DNA of 56,451 nt from a virus, in IMG/VR virus record IMGVR_UViG_3300005663_000052, positions 1-56,451 of that record; one strand, given 5' to 3'. A program made the position numbers and the translations under genes. Every line of letters begins with the position of its first letter. Within the stretch, counting starts at the first letter, position 1. Below the pieces are notes generated by a model. The model did no database searches, was not told the DNA's origin, and worked only from the letters and a program-made list of their open reading frames with translations. Shown one piece after another: positions 34,707-44,801 of this stretch.

Positions 34707-35110
34707 TGCACTTCCCCTCCATTTCGAGTGGCCTCAACAGCAAAATACTTCGTCTGGATTTCCTCGAAAAACGGTAGCCCGTAGCCGTGGTAATTGTCGT
34801 GATGCTGCAAGGGATCGTCAAGAATCCACAGCCACATCTTGACGACTTCATACATCAGGCTGGCCGAGATTCCCCGTTGCCCTTCCGCTTTCTCGATTCC
34901 GAAATTCAAGTCAGATTCAAGTTGAGCCAAGAGTTCTTCTCTTGCCCAGGGTTTCAGAGTACATGTTTCTTCTCCTGGTAATGCAAAACCAAACGGCTCC
35001 CATTGGTCACTCTCGAAAAACAAAACCAAGCGAGCATAATCTCGGCCATCAAGGCATTGCGACTCTCTGCCGTTTCGCACTGCTTCCAAAACTGCCTCTT
35101 TGGTTTTCAT
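34703..35110 (-). CDS. Protein of unknown function between direct repeats
   Basis: 135 residues with GGAGGGG before the ATG. Mixed helix and strand with QRGISASLMYEVVKMWLWI. The final ATRNGGE residues repeat the end of the preceding protein because both ends lie in the same 22-base direct repeat. Not recognised. Confidence 0.45.
   Translation of the reverse strand: MKTKEAVLEAVRNGRESQCLDGRDYARLVLFFESDQWEPFGFALPGEETCTLKPWAREELLAQLESDLNFGIEKAEGQRGISASLMYEVVKMWLWILDDPLQHHDNYHGYGLPFFEEIQTKYFAVEATRNGGEVQ
34712..34733. repeat. 22-bp direct repeat, copy 1
   Basis: Identical to 35116-35137. Each copy encodes the last residues of one gene and the ribosome site of the next, and together they flank a whole gene. 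Recombination between them would remove or add that gene without harming its neighbours. Confidence 0.8.
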
Positions 35111-36015
35111 GGAATTTCCCCTCCATTTCGAGTGGCCAGTTTCCTCAAAACCCCAATCCCCATCTTGTCCCCCAAAAACTCCACATGGCCGTCGGCATAC
35201 AAAAACTCCACGCCCCCATCATGCCGACTGCTGAAAAAGATATCGTTGAACAAACAGTTCTGATCCGCCCGAGCGTGATTGTACTTCCGCTCTTCCGGAT
35301 CAGTATTGAGTGGCCACGTCACATTCTTGCAACTGAACACGCAGACGTGGTTGTCAATCCCGTAGATGTCCGTTCGATAAGCCCCCGCCGTCCACACTCT
35401 CAACCAGTTGATTTGCTCGCCGACGGCCAGGGTGTTGCTCGCACCGTCATGGGTATCGGCGATTCGCACACCGGACAGTGGATACAAGATTCCGTCGGTG
35501 TGATACCCGCCACAGTGACTTGTTTCGAGTAAGCGAAATTCCGCAGCCCCAGCGACACCGCAATAATTTGCAGTCCGCCATCGGAAGACTGTTTGCATGT
35601 GCGGGTCGAACGGCTGCCGCCCATCGCTGGGACATTCGTATCCTGGGATCCTGGTGGAGGACAACCGATTGTCCAGGCCATTGCAGATCGAATCATCGAA
35701 ATCAAACGCATCGTGTCGCCCCCTTTCATCGAGAAATGGAAGGATGAGAACTCGCCAGCCTTCTCGGGTGCCCGTGGGTGTGCCGTAGGGCCCGCCTGTT
35801 GATGTGAGAAAACCAACGGCAGCTCCGCATGGGAATGATTCGTGGGCTTCGTGGTAGCTGTGGAGAGCCAGGCCGATTTGTTTGAGGTTGTTGGAGCATT
35901 GGGCCATGCGGGCGGATTCCCGGGCTGATTGGACTGCGGGGAGTAGGAGAGCGAGCAGGACGCCGATGATGGCGACTACTACTAGGAGTTCGATTAGAGT
36001 GAATGCTTTCTTCAC
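35107..36015 (-). CDS. DUF1559 prepilin-like protein
   Basis: 302 residues from the GTG at 36015 (GTGA overlap). The N-terminus VKKAFTLIELLVVVAIIG has the type IV prepilin cleavage site and helix; it continues LPAVQSARESARMAQC, SNNLKQIGLALHSYHE, then the C-terminal DHVEF-like ending (YADGHVEFLGD). This is the DUF1559 family, hugely expanded in planctomycetes and nearly confined to them. It would be inserted in the inner membrane and processed by the host prepilin peptidase. Host-derived cargo next to a symporter and an Asp-box protein. Confidence 0.85.
   Translation of the reverse strand: MKKAFTLIELLVVVAIIGVLLALLLPAVQSARESARMAQCSNNLKQIGLALHSYHEAHESFPCGAAVGFLTSTGGPYGTPTGTREGWRVLILPFLDERGRHDAFDFDDSICNGLDNRLSSTRIPGYECPSDGRQPFDPHMQTVFRWRTANYCGVAGAAEFRLLETSHCGGYHTDGILYPLSGVRIADTHDGASNTLAVGEQINWLRVWTAGAYRTDIYGIDNHVCVFSCKNVTWPLNTDPEERKYNHARADQNCLFNDIFFSSRHDGGVEFLYADGHVEFLGDKMGIGVLRKLATRNGGEIP
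35116..35137. repeat. 22-bp direct repeat, copy 2
   Basis: Identical to 34712-34733; see that entry. Confidence 0.8.
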
Positions 36016-36317
36016 AACTCCAAGTCCTCCAGTAACTTTGTCATTTGCAAGCCGTGAATATACAGAGCATCCCAGCGGCCTTCTGTGCCCATGCATGCCC
36101 ACCAGCCATTCAATTTCATTTTGTAAAATCTGGCTTTCAGGTCGGCTGGCGAACTTCTGTCAAGACAAAATGATTCGTAGCCCGTGACACCGCCCTTAGC
36201 GAGCCACACGGCTCTGTCTGCTTCTGAGTCAGTCCGTACTTCTACTTGAATGTCTACAACTCGCGGCTCGCCTGTTCGACAATCAAACCGCACGCCTTGG
36301 ATGGTTGTTGTTTCCAT
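36012..36317 (-). CDS. Small protein of unknown function
   Basis: 101 residues from the ATG at 36317, five bases after GGAGG. Starts METTTIQGVRFDCRTG; probably alpha/beta with IQVEVRTDSEADRAV and a C-terminal helix. Sits between symporter and DUF1559 genes, overlapping both by a few bases. Not recognised. Confidence 0.5.
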   Translation of the reverse strand: METTTIQGVRFDCRTGEPRVVDIQVEVRTDSEADRAVWLAKGGVTGYESFCLDRSSPADLKARFYKMKLNGWWACMGTEGRWDALYIHGLQMTKLLEDLEL

Positions 36318-37666
36318 CATTTCCTCCCCGCCCACGCGGCCGTAAGTTGCACCGCCAACCCCAACGGACTGGCCAGTAGAAACGTAATCCCCGAAAAGTA
36401 AGTCACGTAAACCACCACGGCCAGGCAGAGAAAGCAACCCAGCCATACCATACGCACGCGGGCACGCGGGATAAAGAGAGCTGTCAACATCAACCCGCCG
36501 AGCGGCGTGGCCAGCAGATTGACAACCTTGTAGCACAGCTCGAAAAGGTTGCCTTCGATAACCCCGATGATTTGAGAGAGAATGAAAATGATGATGCCAA
36601 GGCCGACGGTGGCAAGGATGGTAATTCCCTGAGAACTACGCCTAGCAATCATGGGTTGAAACCAATCACTCGCCACCGTCGACACACACGAATTGATACC
36701 GCTAGAAAGACTACTCATGGCCGCCGAAAGCAAAGCTGCCACAATCAACCCACTGACGCCCACGGGGAGCCCCGCCCCAACGATTCGGGGGAACAAATCG
36801 TCCGCAACCGAGACGGGGCTCGACCCATGGGCCATCAGACAGCACACACCAACGCACGCGAGCAAGCCTGTCAACAGACAGTCCAACGCAAATCCCCCGA
36901 AGAGAACCTGCCGGGCCTGGCGTGAATCGGCCACTGCCAAAAACCGCTGGGCATTCATTTGGTCGTCCGTTTTCACGCAAATGCCGAGCGAAAGCGATCC
37001 CACGATTGCCGTGACTACTGAAGCCCGTGCCCACGGATCGCAGAATTTGAGCACAGGCCAATCTACGTGAAAGGGCGCATTTTGCCCATTCCACACCACC
37101 TCCTTTCCAGCGATCAAAATGACAGCGACAGCCCCGCCAAACATGACCGCCGCCTGAATGCAATCAGTCAAGCCAACCATTATCACAGCGAGTGTCCAGG
37201 TTGTTGCTCGATTACTGCGACCAAAGACAATCGGGGACAGAATCACACTTGATGCAATGTGGACTATCATGGCCATCCAAGCAACCCTCATGGCCAGAAA
37301 CAACGCCGATGCAAACCGCCCCAAAAAAACTCCAAATTTTTTCTCGATGATTTTGTAGGCCGAAACCGTTTGCGAAAACCGTAGGCGGGGAATGACTTTC
37401 CAGCCGACGAACCAAAGGGCAAAAGGGGCTGCCAACAGGCCAACGTAAACGCCCGGGCCGTTGGCTGCCACTTCCCCTGGGATGGCCGTGTAGCTGATTA
37501 CCGAGAACCACGAGACAAACAACGATGCCGCCACCGGCAACGGACCCATCCGTCGGCCGCCGAGAAAGAAATCATCGGCAGTGCGGTTCCGTTGCTGGTA
37601 CCATCTGCCAATCATCAGGACTGCCAGGCAGTAGCTCGCGATAATCAGATAATCCAACCAACTCAT
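36317..37666 (-). CDS. Sodium:solute symporter (SSS family)
   Basis: 449 residues, about 12 membrane helices. Family marks: ADDFFLGGRRMGPL near residue 30, SWFSVISYTAIPGEV with the sodium-site serines, and VAALLSAAMSSLSSGINS near residue 320. The SSS family imports sugars, sialic acids, amino acids and vitamins with sodium; the substrate cannot be read from sequence alone. In planctomycetes such symporters often sit beside Asp-box proteins, as here. A full-length transporter is very unusual phage cargo and implies metabolic help to a lysogen or infected cell. Confidence 0.85.
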   Translation of the reverse strand: MSWLDYLIIASYCLAVLMIGRWYQQRNRTADDFFLGGRRMGPLPVAASLFVSWFSVISYTAIPGEVAANGPGVYVGLLAAPFALWFVGWKVIPRLRFSQTVSAYKIIEKKFGVFLGRFASALFLAMRVAWMAMIVHIASSVILSPIVFGRSNRATTWTLAVIMVGLTDCIQAAVMFGGAVAVILIAGKEVVWNGQNAPFHVDWPVLKFCDPWARASVVTAIVGSLSLGICVKTDDQMNAQRFLAVADSRQARQVLFGGFALDCLLTGLLACVGVCCLMAHGSSPVSVADDLFPRIVGAGLPVGVSGLIVAALLSAAMSSLSSGINSCVSTVASDWFQPMIARRSSQGITILATVGLGIIIFILSQIIGVIEGNLFELCYKVVNLLATPLGGLMLTALFIPRARVRMVWLGCFLCLAVVVYVTYFSGITFLLASPLGLAVQLTAAWAGRK

Positions 37667-37869
37667 TCCGGATCTTCCTCTTGGCGAAACGGCACAGGTA
37701 CTTCCTCGTTTCCAACCAGTACATCAATGACCATTTTGATTCCGGCTGGTGTGTGTTCGACCGCCTCCAGCGTTTGCCGAAGTCGTTGTTCCACTGTCTT
37801 TCCGTCAATGACGCCGAAAATCTCGTGTTCGCCGGCAACAATCAGACAGACAATTCGCTTGGCTTTCAT
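37663..37869 (-). CDS. Small protein of unknown function
   Basis: 68 residues, ATGA overlap with the symporter. A strand (KRIVCLIVAGEHEIFG) followed by a helix (EQRLRQTLEAVEHTPAG). Not recognised. Confidence 0.45.
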   Translation of the reverse strand: MKAKRIVCLIVAGEHEIFGVIDGKTVEQRLRQTLEAVEHTPAGIKMVIDVLVGNEEVPVPFRQEEDPE

Positions 37870-38486
37870 TTCTGACTCGCAATGAATTCCATCAGAGCCT
37901 CGGAAATCCTCTTCTCCCGGGCTTCCGTGATCCGTTCCAGTCCAGAGAGATTCCCGTTGTTCTCGTGGTAGGCGGCCAAGTCTCCGACTGTCTCGAATCC
38001 ATTGTGCTTTGTCAGTGCAGTTTCAATCACCGACGACAATTTCAACACGGAAATAGGTGCCTTTGCCCAGCCAGCATTCTTCGGACTGATTTTCACCGTC
38101 GGGGCAGGTGCCATCAAGTCGGGTGATTCGGCAACCAGTCGGCCGAGTTCCGTGTAGGCAGCATCAATCTTCCCGCGAATCTCGTTGGCTTGATCCAGCA
38201 GGTTTTTTTCCTTGACCTGCAAATTCCGCACCTTCGCACGTGCTCTTTCTGCGGACGCCAGAAACTTCGGTAGCTGGGCTGCCGGTTGCTCGGGTTGCTG
38301 GGTGGGTGGTGCTGGCTCTGATTCTGGTTCTGTCTCGGGTTCGGGTTCTGGCTCGGGTTCGGGCGCCGCGGCCTCTGGTGCCGTTTCCGGCTCCGCTCCA
38401 TCCGCAACCTCATTCCAAGTTTCCAACTCGCCAGACTTCTCGGGCTTTTCCGTCTTCACTTCACTTGCGTCCAGTTCGATTCCCAT
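37866..38486 (-). CDS. Protein with Pro/Glu repeat linker and helical C-terminus
   Basis: 206 residues from the ATG at 38486 (TGATG overlap). Residues 35-75 are alternating Pro and Glu (PEPEPEPEP type), an extended linker. Then a coiled coil (SAERARAKVRNLQVKEKN) and a C-terminal domain with GFETVGDLAAYH and ISEALMEFIASQK, helix-hairpin-helix-like. Next to the ERCC4 nuclease gene, so a DNA recombination partner is plausible. Confidence 0.5.
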   Translation of the reverse strand: MGIELDASEVKTEKPEKSGELETWNEVADGAEPETAPEAAAPEPEPEPEPETEPESEPAPPTQQPEQPAAQLPKFLASAERARAKVRNLQVKEKNLLDQANEIRGKIDAAYTELGRLVAESPDLMAPAPTVKISPKNAGWAKAPISVLKLSSVIETALTKHNGFETVGDLAAYHENNGNLSGLERITEAREKRISEALMEFIASQK

Positions 38487-38980
38487 CAGTCTCCCTTTCC
38501 TTCTTGGGCTTGCTGCCAGAATTTCTCCAGCAGTCGGAATGTAGTGATTTCTGCGAGCCGCCTGTCGTGCATGGCCCACCAGCAAACCTTGTGGCGGACG
38601 GACCAACTGAGTGCTGTCCGGTAGATCGACTTGGGCGGCATTTTCGTATGTTCTGGTGGTGATTTGAGAATGGTTTTCCAATCGGCCTCGACAACTACCG
38701 CCGCGTACTCGAATTCTGCGAGCCGTGCGAATTCTTTCTCGAATCGTTCTCTGCCCTGGCCGCAGGAATTGTAGAGGTCGGCCAGGCTCTTCCGTTCGAT
38801 GGCGATGCGATGTTCGAGACCTTCGATTGAATAGTCACCTGTTTTGAGTCCCTTCCATTTCCACTCGACGGCCAGCGGGCGGTACTGCTGAGCGGCGCCT
38901 GCCCTGAATCCCTTGAATTCGTACGGCCGTTGCTCGCGGGAGTCTACCAGTACAACGAATGGGCATTTGATTGATTCCAT
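38486..38980 (-). CDS. ERCC4-domain nuclease
   Basis: 164 residues. The XPF/ERCC4 fold is marked by VVLVDSREQRPYEF, LKTGDYSIEGLE and IAIERKSLADLY, giving the GDxxxERKxxxD metal site, then AAVVVEADW. Such small phage proteins act as junction resolvases or structure-specific nucleases. Belongs to the recombination module with the ATPase and exonuclease at 42-44 kb. One pentamer array lies directly upstream of its start. Confidence 0.85.
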   Translation of the reverse strand: MESIKCPFVVLVDSREQRPYEFKGFRAGAAQQYRPLAVEWKWKGLKTGDYSIEGLEHRIAIERKSLADLYNSCGQGRERFEKEFARLAEFEYAAVVVEADWKTILKSPPEHTKMPPKSIYRTALSWSVRHKVCWWAMHDRRLAEITTFRLLEKFWQQAQEGKGD

Positions 38981-38986
38981 TGTGTT

Positions 38987-39545
38987 TTGCCTGCCAGTCC
39001 GTGCCGTGCCTTGCCCCGTCTCGCCATGCCCTGTCTAGCCTCGCCTGCGACGCCATGCCCTTCCCAGCCAGACCTTGCCGATCCGGACCCAGCCACACCG
39101 CGCCTCACCGTACCTGCCGTGCCTCACCTCGCCTTGCCGGTCCTGGCCCAGCCGGTCCGGGCCTTTCCGTGCCTGCCATGCCTGGCCCAGCCTTGCCCAT
39201 CCGAACCAATCCTCGCCCATCCGTACCGCGCCAGACCATCCCTTGCCTGCCGTGCCTCGCCTGCCGTGCCGTGCCATGCCATGCCTAGCCGCACCAGGCC
39301 CAGCCTTGCCACACCGGCCGTGCCCCGCCTGCCCAGCCTCGCCTTGCCTTGCCGTACCCATCCCTGCCGGTCCGCGCCTTGTCATGCCTGCCGTGCCGTG
39401 CCTTGCCATGCCTGGCCAGACCTTGCCTGGCCGATCCAGGCCCAGCCTTGCCACACCGGCCGTGCCGTGCCTTGCCATGCCTAGCCTGACCATGCCCAGC
39501 CCCACCGAGCCCCGCCAGCCGCGCCAAGCCCATCCGGGCCACGTC
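38987..39545. repeat. Pentamer array B (punctuated NNNCC repeat)
   Basis: About 560 bases made almost only of five-base units ending in CC on the plus strand (gtgcc, ttgcc, cagcc, gatcc and the like), roughly 110 units. Now and then a four-base unit, nearly always tgcc or ggcc, interrupts the run and is usually followed by gtgcc; distances between these marks are 14, 54, 59, 69 or 74 bases, all 4 more than a multiple of 5. Sub-blocks are shared with array A. Open frames across it are low-complexity and without ribosome sites. It occupies the whole gap upstream of the ERCC4 nuclease gene. Confidence 0.9.
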
Positions 39546-39554
39546 AAACTGCCT

Positions 39555-40025
39555 TCACTCAATATCATCCACCCCCGCGAAGGTCCGCTTGACGGCCCGT
39601 TCCAAAATGCTCAAATCCAACTCACTCAACTGCCCGTATTTCATTTGGAAACTGGACAGCCAATTTTCAGCCTCCCGTTTCGATTGCAGCAGCAGTTTCA
39701 CCCGACGTTCCTTGTCGTCAAGCACCTCAGCCAAAATATGGTACCCCTGCTCCTCACCCGACGGCGTCAAGTTGATGTAGTGCCGTGTCACTTCCCCGCT
39801 GCCGTCTGGCTTCGTTATATGCACCTGCCGAATGACCCGCCGGCAAACCTCCCGCCAGTGTTCCAGAGCGGCTTCCTTGATGTTCCAGTTGAACCGCTTA
39901 TGCAGTTCCCAATCCTTGTTTTCTTTGGCTGCCTCAATCACATCGTCTACCAACAGCCGGCCATCAGGCGTCCGCTCCACCTGGTCCAACTCTTGCCTGA
40001 TTTGTTCAACGTCCTCGCGGGTCAT
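39555..40025 (-). CDS. Protein of unknown function between the two arrays
   Basis: 156 residues from the ATG at 40025 (MTREDVEQIRQELDQVE). Helical and charged with KRFNWNIKEAALEHWREVC and LQSKREAENWLSSFQMKY. May be a DNA-binding partner of the recombination genes. Not recognised. Flanked by an array on one side and a strong hairpin on the other. Confidence 0.5.
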   Translation of the reverse strand: MTREDVEQIRQELDQVERTPDGRLLVDDVIEAAKENKDWELHKRFNWNIKEAALEHWREVCRRVIRQVHITKPDGSGEVTRHYINLTPSGEEQGYHILAEVLDDKERRVKLLLQSKREAENWLSSFQMKYGQLSELDLSILERAVKRTFAGVDDIE

Positions 40026-40052
40026 TACATGCCTCCGATTGTTTTGAGTAAT

Positions 40053-40084
40053 GGCCGCGGCCAGCCATGAAACTGGCCGCGGCC
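40053..40084 (-). terminator. 12-bp inverted repeat, possible terminator
   Basis: GGCCGCGGCCAG at 40053-40064 pairs with CTGGCCGCGGCC at 40073-40084 with an 8-base loop. It sits in the short gap between two genes. There is no good T-run on the minus strand, so it may be a processing or pausing site instead. Confidence 0.5.
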
Positions 40085-40100
40085 CGAACCGCCTCATCCA

Positions 40101-40763
40101 TCAAGCGGCAATCTTGAAAAAGCCCCAGCCCAAACCAGTGGACTTCTTGCTGTCGTTCCGGCCTTCACCGATGCCAACCTGCAAGCCCACTCTCAACAGC
40201 AGATTGCCAACGTCTTCGGCCGTGAATTGGTCGGCGTCATACTCGACGCGAACCTTTGCCTGCCAACCAGGCGACCACATCGGCCTTGCCCGAATGTCCA
40301 CAACCCCCGTGGCGTTGCGTACCGGCAACTCACTGTACTTGGGCTTGCCCTTGGTGATTTTCACCAGTGGCGTACCGTCGCTGCCGTAGCCGTCCGCCTG
40401 GATGACCAGGGCCAACTTGCCGCGAGTCATAGCGAACCCACACAGCTTGCAGGCGGAGATCATCGCTGCCCGCAGTCCGGGAGCCGGCAATCCGTGCCAA
40501 CCGCCGTCCTCTGCCTTGTGCATGGCATTCTCGTAACACTCCTTGAAATTCTTCGGCTTCCGTTTGGCTCCCTTCGTAGCAGTCGAGCCCGCTTCCTGCT
40601 TGGCTCGCATCTCTGCCAGTGCCTTGTTCGGAAACCTGTTCTGCACGTAGGGCGAGGTGCCCTCGATCAGGAATTCCGCCACGCGGAGATTCGGTGCAGT
40701 GATTTGGAGTGCCTCTGTCTTGCTTTCGGCACTCTTTGCCTTAGGTGCAGCTTTCTTAGCCAT
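40101..40763 (-). CDS. Conserved phage protein, possible RAMP-like fold
   Basis: 220 residues from the ATG at 40763, with AAGGAG upstream; frames that begin further up only read the repeat array. Basic start (MAKKAAPKAKSAESK), then GWHGLPAPGLRAAMISACK, LCGFAMTRGKLALVI, DGTPLVKITKG, RNATGVVDIRARPMW, and a final VGIGEGRNDSKKSTGLGWG. I recognise this as a family spread over many phages with no agreed function; the Gly-rich end is reminiscent of RNA-binding RAMP proteins. In this context it may take part in recombination. Confidence 0.55.
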   Translation of the reverse strand: MAKKAAPKAKSAESKTEALQITAPNLRVAEFLIEGTSPYVQNRFPNKALAEMRAKQEAGSTATKGAKRKPKNFKECYENAMHKAEDGGWHGLPAPGLRAAMISACKLCGFAMTRGKLALVIQADGYGSDGTPLVKITKGKPKYSELPVRNATGVVDIRARPMWSPGWQAKVRVEYDADQFTAEDVGNLLLRVGLQVGIGEGRNDSKKSTGLGWGFFKIAA

Positions 40764-40855
40764 TGTCTGGCTCCTTGTTCTGCATTCCCCGAGATTGATA
40801 AATTGCTCGCCATGGTTCGGGGGTGCCCATGGGTTGCTTGTATTGGTTGGTGGCC

Positions 40856-41363
40856 ATGCCGTGCCTTGCCTAGCCTTGCCGTGCCAGTCCACTCCCGGCC
40901 GCTCCTTGCCTGCGATGCCCGGCCAGTCTTCGCCAAACCCAGCCCTGCCGGTCCTGGCCAAACCCCGCCGCACCAAACCTTTCCATGCCTGCCGTGTCAC
41001 GCCTGGCCGTACCTAACCTCGCCCGGCCACGCCGCACCTCGCCCTGCCTCGCCTGCCGTGCCGTGCCCTGCCTGGCCCAGCCCCGCCAAGCCCCGCCTGC
41101 CATGCCCTACCCCGCCCCGCCGTGCCAAGCCCCGCCAATCCGTGCCTGCCGTGCCGTGCCTTGCCAAGCCTTGCCGCGCCCAGCCCCGCCGCGCCTAGTC
41201 ATGCCTGCCGTGTCTTGCCTGGCCCCGCCGCGCCGCGCCATACCTCGCCTCACCGTACCTGCCGTGCCATACCTCGCCTGGCCGATCCAGGCCCAGCCTT
41301 GCCGCGCCTGCCGTGCCGTGCCTTGCCATGCCTAGCCCAGCCCCGCCGCGCCCCGCCTGCCAA
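40856..41363. repeat. Pentamer array A (punctuated NNNCC repeat)
   Basis: About 505 bases with the same make-up as array B: runs of five-base units ending CC, interrupted by four-base tgcc marks followed by gtgcc. Blocks such as gccgatccaggcccagcc (near 41279) and gtgccttgccatgcctagcc (near 41318) are also present in array B (near 39430 and 39466). The array lies between the single-strand-binding-like gene and the conserved phage gene. No coding capacity is credible. Confidence 0.9.
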
Positions 41364-41367
41364 TATC

Positions 41368-41934
41368 CTAAACATCATCCCAATCACCCGCCGCCCCATC
41401 CCCTGCCCCCTCATCCCCAGCACCCTCAGCACCATCAAAAGGGACAGCTTCCTCTCCCGCCACTTCTCCCGTCCCTCGCGGCACATTCGCCACGTCCGGA
41501 TGGTCGAGAGTCCACATGGAGTCCCAGGGGATCTTGGTATACTTCTTGCCCTTGTCTATCTGTTCCTCGGCAACCACAATCAACTCAGCCCCTTCGGCAT
41601 CGGCGAAATCCACGTCTTTTTTTTCACCGATTTTTAGCAGCCTACAGGCAATCGCAAAAACCCTGAGACGTTCCAGCATCTTCTTGGTCTTCTCCGGTCG
41701 CTTGCATATGTCTTCATCCTTGGACGCCACTCCAAAGAACTCTGTGAACTGCGTGCCCTGCTGGCCAGGCACCGTACCGTTCAGCACCTTGAACTCAACG
41801 ATCACCTTTTCGATCTTGACGAAAGTATCGTCCGCCCGCAGCACCTTCACATGGTACTGCCCTGGCTTCGGCCGCGGCGTCCCATGGGCATCGTCTTCAC
41901 TCTCGAACCCGCTGGCGTCCAGTTTAATGGGCAT
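41368..41934 (-). CDS. Single-strand DNA-binding-like protein (DUF669 type)
   Basis: 188 residues. An OB-like beta domain (PKPGQYHVKVLRADDTFV, VIVEFKVLNGTVPGQQG, then FFGVASKDEDICKR) is followed by a linker and an acidic end DGAAGDWDDV. The acidic tail is typical of single-strand-binding proteins that recruit partners. Its place directly before an annealing-type ATPase supports a role in replication or recombination. The 126 bases upstream hold a frame of ~45 codons without a normal start and are left unassigned. Confidence 0.65.
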   Translation of the reverse strand: MPIKLDASGFESEDDAHGTPRPKPGQYHVKVLRADDTFVKIEKVIVEFKVLNGTVPGQQGTQFTEFFGVASKDEDICKRPEKTKKMLERLRVFAIACRLLKIGEKKDVDFADAEGAELIVVAEEQIDKGKKYTKIPWDSMWTLDHPDVANVPRGTGEVAGEEAVPFDGAEGAGDEGAGDGAAGDWDDV

Positions 41935-42060
41935 CTTCTATCTCCAATGCTCGTGTAATGGTTTCAGTTTCTTTGCGTGTGTGGCAGAAACTCGCTGGGT
42001 AGCCAAGCACTGCCCGTGCCGTACGTTCGACGGCAGCATTTCCGTGCCGCTCAATCAGGT

Positions 42061-43140
42061 TCAGTAGGGAATGTCCCCTTCCTTCACCATGGTCTTCTGG
42101 CGAGGGTTTGCCGGTGCCTTCGCTGCCTCCTGGCCTTCGAGTTTCTTTTGCAGAGCCGAAATCAAATTTGCGGCCCCCTCAACATTCAATCCAGCAGTAG
42201 TTTTCGCTCCACGTTTTGCGATAGCCTTTTGGAAAGCCGCCAGTGGCATCCCCAGTTTTTTCGCCAGTCCCTTGCACAGATCAATCTGTTCGGCACTCGC
42301 TCGCTCCTGCCCACTGGTGTCGGCCGGCGGAGTGACTGGGGCCATGGAATCGGCCATCAGCCCGGCAGAAGAAGCCGGCTCCGGTTTAGCAGGAGGCGAT
42401 GTTTCGACTCCACCTGCCGCGGTGTCCCGCCCGCCCGGAGCCGGCTGGGAAGTGCTGCCAAGATTGAGCCAATCAATGATCGGCTTGACGAAGTCAGGCC
42501 CCGGCTTCTCAGCCCGGGCCCCATCGACTGCCGAACATCTTGTCTTGGTAACCAAAATCCGATGGTCCCAATCGAGTTCGCAGACTACGTCAAACTCGTA
42601 TTCCATGCCGGGTCGTTGGATGGGAGCCATGCCAACCTTTCGTGGAACCAATCGGCCTTTGGAATCTTCCTCCAGTACGTGTTCCATCTTGGAACGCATG
42701 GTGACAATCACGTGGGCTGGAAAAGAGAGCAGGGATTCCACCATCCGCTGGTGCTTTGGCGTAACGTCTTTCCACGCAGTGTATTTGTTTTTGGATGGGC
42801 TGTTTGCCACCTGCTCCAACGCACCTCCGATGCCCTCCCAAGCATGGCTGAGCGAATCCACGATCAGGACGTCAGGCCTCAGTCGAGCCGCCTCCTGCAT
42901 TGCCACCGTGTAATTCTGCGGATCAAAATGTTTGAGTTCGCAGACTCGCCAATTCCAGGTATGCCCATCAACCACTTCCCCCTGGTACTTGCTCATCGAA
43001 CCGTGTTCGGTATCAATGGCCACTACCCTCTTGCCGAGAGCAAATGCAAATCGCAATGCCGTGTAGGTTTTCCCGCTGCCCGATGGCCCGTCAATGGCCA
43101 TTCGGAGCTTGGCTTTTTTTCGTGTCGCTGGTTCAAACAT
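42061..43140 (-). CDS. Sak4-like RecA-fold ATPase
   Basis: 359 residues. Walker A GPSGSGKTYTALRFA at residue 18, Walker B PDVLIVDSLSHAWEG near 90, and IVTMRSKMEHVLEE with an arginine-finger region near 147. This is the phage AAA/RecA-fold family (Sak4, DUF-type AAA_24) that promotes single-strand annealing with a single-strand-binding protein. The C-terminal 140 residues are a Pro/Ala linker and a small helical domain. Lies in one run with the exonuclease and the binding protein. Confidence 0.8.
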   Translation of the reverse strand: MFEPATRKKAKLRMAIDGPSGSGKTYTALRFAFALGKRVVAIDTEHGSMSKYQGEVVDGHTWNWRVCELKHFDPQNYTVAMQEAARLRPDVLIVDSLSHAWEGIGGALEQVANSPSKNKYTAWKDVTPKHQRMVESLLSFPAHVIVTMRSKMEHVLEEDSKGRLVPRKVGMAPIQRPGMEYEFDVVCELDWDHRILVTKTRCSAVDGARAEKPGPDFVKPIIDWLNLGSTSQPAPGGRDTAAGGVETSPPAKPEPASSAGLMADSMAPVTPPADTSGQERASAEQIDLCKGLAKKLGMPLAAFQKAIAKRGAKTTAGLNVEGAANLISALQKKLEGQEAAKAPANPRQKTMVKEGDIPY

Positions 43141-44727: not shown

Positions 44728-44801
44728 TCGTGGGGGCCAGACTCGAACTGGCGACCTCAAGGTTATGAGCCTTGCGAGCTAGCCAACTGCTCCACCCCAC
44801 A
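44728..44801 (-). tRNA. tRNA-Met (anticodon CAT)
   Basis: Reads as a complete cloverleaf: acceptor stem TGTGGGG with CCCCACG (1-72 is a U-G pair), D arm GAGC/GCTC, anticodon stem CAAGG/CCTTG with loop CTCATAA, T arm GCCAG TTCGAGT CTGGC. The anticodon stem lacks the three G-C pairs of initiators, so this should be an elongator Met tRNA, or an Ile tRNA with modified C. No CCA is encoded. It could supplement host supply or mark an integration target. Confidence 0.9.

What the first reader, a model, noticed from the sequence alone, without database searches (positions are those of the whole stretch)
38987..41363. Two long noncoding arrays of punctuated five-base units flank two recombination-module genes
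Both arrays consist of degenerate pentamers ending in CC, with rare four-base marks (tgcc, sometimes ggcc) that reset the phase and are usually followed by gtgcc. In array B the distances between marks are 14, 54, 59, 69 and 74 bases. The two arrays share blocks of 18-25 bases although the two genes between them are unrelated to the arrays. Such a two-level code is not a known CRISPR, iteron, or attachment layout. Roles to consider: recombination-prone borders for swapping genes, an origin or packaging signal, strong DNA structure (GG every five bases on one strand), or transcribed structured RNA.
Basis: seen in the sequence. Interest (0 to 1): 0.85.

Follow-up and report, generated by a model that had tools for sequence, protein, structure and literature searches.

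The report
Phage RNA-guide arrays of VIPR type
The two odd five-base arrays are lists of about 17 guide RNAs for VIPR, a phage-encoded RNA-guided DNA-binding system related to CRISPR that was reported in 2026, and one of the two genes between them encodes its protein; this is a new, well-formed member of a very recently described kind of system.

Summary
The arrays are real and far beyond chance. They are not recombination borders. Read on the coding (minus) strand they are GGY-NN pentamers with GG nearly fixed and NN close to maximum entropy. Four-base GGCA marks cut them into 17 tracts of 8-15 units. One of the two genes between them (40101-40763) encodes a Cas7/Csm3-fold RAMP protein whose family profile matches PDB 36pp, "SUSP1 Vipr protein" (E=2.7e-39). 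The match, the GGY/NN repeats, the tract length and the layout fit VIPR (Viral Interference Programmable Repeat; bioRxiv 2026, PMC13142463). The other gene (39555-40097) is a conserved partner in about half of the Vipr loci and probably the accessory vap. A blind DNA scan for the pentamer alone recovered viral loci of which most also encode Vipr (63 of 74 strong arrays), on the same strand in 97 of 99 arrays. I found no target for the window's own guides. In related mycobacteriophages, one Quico/Florinda guide matches the tape-measure gene of Che8, Wachhund, Squirty and Minnie at 19 of 20 bases, under the published one-nucleotide-skip rule, with skips on codon wobble positions. Verdict: new member of a known kind; the GGCA-punctuated, tail-less array architecture is the least described part.

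The parts
38987..39546 (-). Guide array A (downstream): GGY-NN units on the minus strand, 8 tracts of 10-14 units separated by 4-base marks at 39520, 39461, 39392, 39333, 39319, 39265, 39251, 39177, 39118, 39049, 38995 (mostly GGCA)
   Evidence: Unit parse and mark coordinates; lies between the stop of 39555-40097 and the start of 38486-38980
40851..41363 (-). Guide array B (upstream): GGY-NN units on the minus strand, 9 tracts of 8-15 units separated by marks at 41361, 41312, 41263, 41209, 41150, 41101, 41057, 40993, 40914
   Evidence: Unit parse and mark coordinates
40101..40763 (-). vipr: 220-aa RAMP (Cas7/Csm3-like) protein, PHROG_4652 family
   Evidence: Family profile vs PDB: 36pp_D 'SUSP1 Vipr protein' E=2.7e-39; AF2 model pLDDT 92.3; Foldseek and VIA-align top hits all CRISPR RAMPs, best Z 12.2 Csm
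39555..40097 (-). Probable vap (vipr accessory protein), PHROG_15946 family; conserved part starts near the ATG at 40025
   Evidence: Homologues, same strand and close by, in 51 of 109 Vipr loci; AF2 model pLDDT 91.7, no significant fold match
38486..38980 (-). Neighbour, ERCC4-type nuclease of the phage; not a conserved part of the system
   Evidence: Pfam PF02732 and phrog_3490; homologue in only one other Vipr locus
41368..41934 (-). Neighbour gene upstream of array B, unknown, not conserved in other Vipr loci
   Evidence: No family, no homologue in the loci
42061..43140 (-). Neighbour, Sak4-like/AAA_24 ATPase of the phage recombination module; not part of the system
   Evidence: phrog_1366, phrog_124, PF13479; homologues in 2 loci only

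Best explanation
The locus is a VIPR system carried by a phage. The arrays are transcribed with the genes (minus strand) and supply about 17 guide RNAs. In each, GGY triplets are held by Vipr protomers that polymerise along the RNA, and the NN dinucleotides between them are read against DNA as NNxNNxNN, one target base skipped per unit. The GGCA marks delimit one guide from the next. The complex binds double-stranded DNA of competing phages or prophages and most likely represses their transcription; the conserved small gene downstream of vipr probably helps as a Vap. Shown here: the array grammar, the RAMP fold and homology to Vipr, the tight genetic linkage over many viruses, and one likely natural target under the 1-nt skip rule in a related phage group. 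Inferred from the published SUSP1 and P. fulva systems: expression, RNA binding, DNA binding and repression. Inferred only: the GGCA mark as guide boundary, and the targets of this window.
For: Profile of 83 relatives of 40101-40763 hits SUSP1 Vipr in the PDB, E=2.7e-39, next sequence 0.13. AF2 model matches Csm3/Cas7 subunits, Z up to 12.2, nearly all listed rows CRISPR RAMPs. Array units are GGY-NN with entropies 0.13, 0.27, 1.11, 1.90, 1.98 bits, as in the paper (PMC13142463). Tract length 8-15 units against 9-16 in the paper. A pentamer scan blind to proteins recovered 120 viral loci; 63 of 74 with strong arrays encode Vipr, 97 of 99 arrays on its strand, 0 of 13 control loci have Vipr. 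The converse: 17 of 19 genome loci found by Vipr alone have arrays. In 50,697 phage records array and Vipr hits have nearly the same holders (32 and 30 records). Target: Quico/Florinda guide matches tape-measure genes of Che8, Wachhund, Squirty, Minnie at 19/20 under 1-nt skip, differences among homologues only at skip (wobble) bases; 0 of 3000 unit-order shuffles reached 19.
Against: No target found for any window guide tested. Only one mycobacteriophage guide has a convincing target, and the same AT-rich guide also has a 17/18 match under a 2-nt skip at another place. No 3' tail like that of SUSP1 vrRNAs fits between the tracts. Third position is A in 22 of 199 window units, so GGY is not strict. 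No expression data.
Confidence: 0.93

Rival explanations
1. A VIPR-derived locus that has changed role: the arrays act as one long RNA scaffold or decoy for Vipr polymers, or in cis on the operon mRNA, rather than as a list of separate guides.
For: Arrays are in the operon, in the sense direction, between genes; no tail or promoter-like site between tracts; no targets for window guides.
Against: NN positions have near-maximal entropy while GG is fixed, as expected for guides; marks segment at guide length in 127 arrays; a related guide has a likely natural target.
Confidence: 0.05
2. Recombination-prone repeat borders for gene swapping.
For: Shared blocks of 18-25 bases between arrays; neighbours include an ERCC4 nuclease and a Sak4-like ATPase.
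Against: The recombination genes are not conserved beside the arrays, while Vipr is; strand bias 97 to 2; punctuation at guide length; arrays often lie on one side of vipr only.
Confidence: 0.02
3. Packaging, origin or other protein-binding DNA site.
For: Long GG-periodic DNA in a phage genome.
Against: Not universal in close relatives: Che8, Tweety and Fruitloop have none, other Cheoctovirus members do; found beside Vipr; NN hypervariable.
Confidence: 0.01
4. Repetitive coding sequence.
For: Open frames run through the arrays; Donkeykong gp48 and UmaThurman gp40 are annotated there.
Against: Unit lengths 5 and 4 shift the frame; open frames follow from the lack of stops in GGYNN repeats (inference from the unit sequence).
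Confidence: 0.01

Closest known systems
VIPR systems (SUSP1 and Pseudomonas fulva prophage, type II; PMC13142463)
   Same: RAMP protein of the same family (36pp), GGY/NN repeat RNA, arrays up- and downstream of vipr in a phage, small accessory gene, tract length
   Different: Here arrays are continuous, without room for the 3' tail, separated only by 4-base GGCA marks, and carry about 17 guides against 4 in SUSP1; the accessory gene is of the PHROG_15946 family; host is probably a planctomycete
VIPR types with staggered arrays of overlapping vrRNAs (mentioned in PMC13142463, fig. S18)
   Same: May be this very architecture
   Different: The supplement could not be read, so identity of type was not tested
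CRISPR-Cas class 1 effectors (Csm3/Cas7)
   Same: Fold of the protein subunit
   Different: No CRISPR repeats, no other cas genes seen beside it, guide code is non-contiguous
TIGR-Tas (PMC12045711)
   Same: Phage-borne RNA-guided system with tandem arrays (abstract)
   Different: Its Tas protein was found from a guide-interaction domain of Cas9 (abstract); the protein here is a RAMP. No direct comparison was run

Membership tests
VIPR | Vipr protein, single-domain RAMP homologue | tested here: met
   36pp_D E=2.7e-39; Cas7/Csm3 fold
VIPR | RNA of alternating conserved GGY and hypervariable NN | tested here: met
   (DNA level); third base C 148, T 28, A 22, G 1 of 199 window units
VIPR | 9-16 repeats per guide | tested here: met
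   Tracts of 8-15 units between marks; the lower end is one unit short of the published range
VIPR | Guides in intergenic DNA next to vipr, phage-encoded | tested here: met
   Window is a virus record with portal, terminase, capsid genes; arrays beside vipr in the window and in 63 of 74 loci with strong arrays
VIPR | vipr accessory gene (vap1-6) | tested here: inconclusive
   Conserved neighbour gene found but the vap families of the paper could not be compared; no fold match
VIPR | DNA recognition by NN with 1-nt skip | tested here: inconclusive
   Supported by one guide of related mycobacteriophages; no target found for window guides
VIPR | vrRNA expressed and bound to Vipr | not testable with these tools
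   No RNA data
VIPR type II (SUSP1-like) | Structured 3' tail after each repeat tract | tested here: not met
   Tracts abut, only 4 bases between
VIPR with hammerhead-interspersed array | Hammerhead ribozymes in the array | tested here: not met
   No Rfam match at E<=1 over 37500-42500
CRISPR-Cas | Near-identical repeats with unique spacers, and cas genes | tested here: not met
   Unit is 5 bases and degenerate; no cas family among the ten genes scanned around the arrays

The most novel reading that the evidence does not exclude
The GGCA-punctuated, tail-less array is a VIPR architecture of its own: one long transcript holds many abutting guides, and a single dropped base (a four-base unit) resets the register and marks where one Vipr filament ends and the next begins, so that the length of a tract alone defines a guide.
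Probability: 0.4. Interest if true: 0.65.

Novelty: new member of a known kind. Interest (0 to 1): 0.5.

Why it matters
VIPR is reported as a possible ancestor of CRISPR RAMPs and reads DNA by a gapped code, so each independent branch that keeps the grammar tests the claim. This locus and its relatives show it in phages and prophages of planctomycetes, cyanobacteria, actinobacteria and proteobacteria. They add a punctuation rule to the guide arrays, and give a testable natural target pair in easily grown phages (Quico or Florinda against Che8). Two protein families of unknown function (PHROG_4652 and PHROG_15946) gain a role, and array-overlapping 'hypothetical proteins' in phage records are probably annotation errors.

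Tried and rejected
Target searches that gave nothing beyond chance. Window guide A5 core in 2.9 million viral contigs: 1 hit, flanks do not match. B8 core: 12 hits, extension 1-6 of 14 where 3.5 is expected. A2 units 1-9, A7 and B7 cores: 0 hits. A2 units 2-10: 2 hits; one (L292) lies in frame in a portal-like gene with skips at wobble bases, but an 18-base pattern is expected to hit about once or twice by chance in such a collection, the flanks match only 3 of 8, no other window guide matches that locus, and portal homologues in planctomycetes do not match. Full A5 in 392 planctomycete genomes with up to 3 mismatches: 0. A Bradyrhizobium guide in 147 genomes of its genus: 3 hits at 2 mismatches against 1 in the control. 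All guides against 1.1 Mb of viral loci: no difference from shuffles. Rfam: no match. Sigma-70 promoters: none found; terminator-like sites at shuffle level. Fold of the accessory protein: best E 0.63, DNA-binding names but not significant.

Full report
WHAT IS THERE. The arrays are as described. The genes around them are on the minus strand, so the arrays were read on that strand, where the unit is GGY-NN. The order of transcription is: gene 41934-41368, array B, gene 40763-40101, gene 40097-39555, array A, ERCC4 nuclease 38980-38486. Position entropies over 199 window units are 0.13, 0.27, 1.11, 1.90 and 1.98 bits: the GG is fixed, the third base is C, T or some A, and the last two are almost random. 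Shuffled sequence of the same bases never came near the periodicity.

THE MARKS. The four-base units are mostly GGCA. In 127 arrays from viral contigs and phages they cut the arrays into tracts, with 68% of spacings at 8-14 units against 25% by random placement. In the window this gives 8 tracts in array A and 9 in array B, of 8-15 units each, plus odd 2-unit tracts and a 4-unit leader.

THE PARTNER GENE. A blastn search of phage records found the same kind of array in Mycobacterium phages of the genus Cheoctovirus, in Gordonia phage UmaThurman and in cyanophage Cy-LDV1. The records that encode a relative of the 40101-40763 protein are nearly the same ones. Of the 74 with strong arrays, 63 encode this protein, and 97 of 99 scored arrays lie on its strand; 13 control loci have none. 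Searching genomes with the protein gave 19 loci, 17 with arrays. The link is therefore seen from both sides.

IDENTITY. The family is PHROG_4652, 'unknown function', for 82 of 83 members, and has no Pfam model. Its profile matches one solved sequence, 36pp chain D, 'SUSP1 Vipr protein', E=2.7e-39. The AlphaFold2 model of the window protein (65 sequences, pLDDT 92.3) finds CRISPR RAMP subunits as its best matches. The paper on the SUSP1 system, PMC13142463, describes VIPR: a phage-borne RAMP with RNAs of alternating GGY and NN, 9-16 repeats each, flanking vipr, usually with a small accessory gene. The NNs pair with double-stranded DNA, one target base being skipped per unit, usually the wobble base. 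The general sequence-level features were met here; the 3' tail of the type II systems was not. The second gene between the arrays (PHROG_15946) sits beside vipr in 51 of 109 loci and is the best candidate for the Vap; its fold gave no significant match.

A TEST OF THE CODE IN A DIFFERENT BRANCH. Guides of VIPR-bearing mycobacteriophages were compared with the genomes of mycobacteriophages under skips of 0-3 bases. One guide of Quico and Florinda (AA TT AT TT TT AT GC CC TC AT) matched Che8 at 19 of 20 bases with a 1-nt skip. None of 3000 reorderings of its units reached 19. The site lies in the tape-measure gene, on the strand and in the frame that put every skipped base at a codon third position. 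Wachhund, Squirty and Minnie carry the same site with 19 of 20, and their differences from Che8 within the site fall only at skipped bases. No such site was found in Quico itself. Caveats: this is one of about 20 distinct guides, and the same AT-rich guide has a 17/18 match with a 2-nt skip elsewhere, which is about what chance gives. I regard the target as likely, not proven.

THE WINDOW'S OWN TARGETS are unknown. Several guides share their 5' starts (GT/GC AA TG CT) or 3' ends (AA AC AC), which explains the shared blocks of 18-25 bases and suggests either duplication of guides or several guides against variants of one gene; the second is only an idea. The searches that failed are listed under rejected.

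HOST. A DUF1559 protein with an N-methylation motif beside the phage genes (DUF1559 is, from general knowledge, typical of planctomycetes) and close Vipr relatives in planctomycete genomes point to a planctomycete host, by inference. The window itself is a phage: terminase, portal, capsid and primase/helicase genes are present.

VERDICT. A VIPR system, new member of a known kind, with an array style (tail-less, GGCA-punctuated, about 17 guides) that differs from the type II systems characterised in the paper and may or may not be among the other types it lists. Supplements could not be read, so this stays open.

Noticed in passing
L016, L020, L039, L040, L044, L051, L075, L090, L091, L110, L120: Eleven viral loci have strong GGYNN arrays but no protein recognised by the Vipr profile; some arrays are at a contig or locus end, others (L016, L020, L075, L091) are not and may have a diverged Vipr or act in trans.
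   Followed up: no
L013:3956-4342 (Donkeykong gp48) and L015:3982-4305 (UmaThurman gp40): Annotated hypothetical proteins coincide with guide arrays and are probably not genes.
   Followed up: partly
window 39333-39319 and 39265-39251: Two-unit tracts between marks (GGCGG GGCAC and GGCGA GGCAC), too short for a guide; similar short tracts occur in other phages.
   Followed up: no
window guides 39457-39393, 39315-39266, 41308-41264: Three guides begin with nearly the same units (GT/GC AA TG CT), and several others end in AA AC AC, as if aimed at variants of one gene or made by duplication.
   Followed up: partly
L292:7026-9185: Portal-like gene with an in-frame exact match to 9 units of window guide 39457-39393; not above chance.
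   Followed up: yes
window 35107-37666: A DUF1559 protein with N-methylation motif and a sodium:solute symporter, host-like genes inside a virus record; suggests a planctomycete host or prophage junction.
   Followed up: no
window 44728-44801: tRNA-Met (CAT) on the minus strand inside the phage.
   Followed up: no
window 38307-38363: Short tandem repeat coding for an EPEPEPE stretch in gene 37866-38681.
   Followed up: no
Che8, Tweety, Fruitloop (L179, L186, L187) against Quico, Saal, BobaPhett, Brocalys, Donkeykong: VIPR is an accessory module within the genus Cheoctovirus: present in some members, absent from others.
   Followed up: partly
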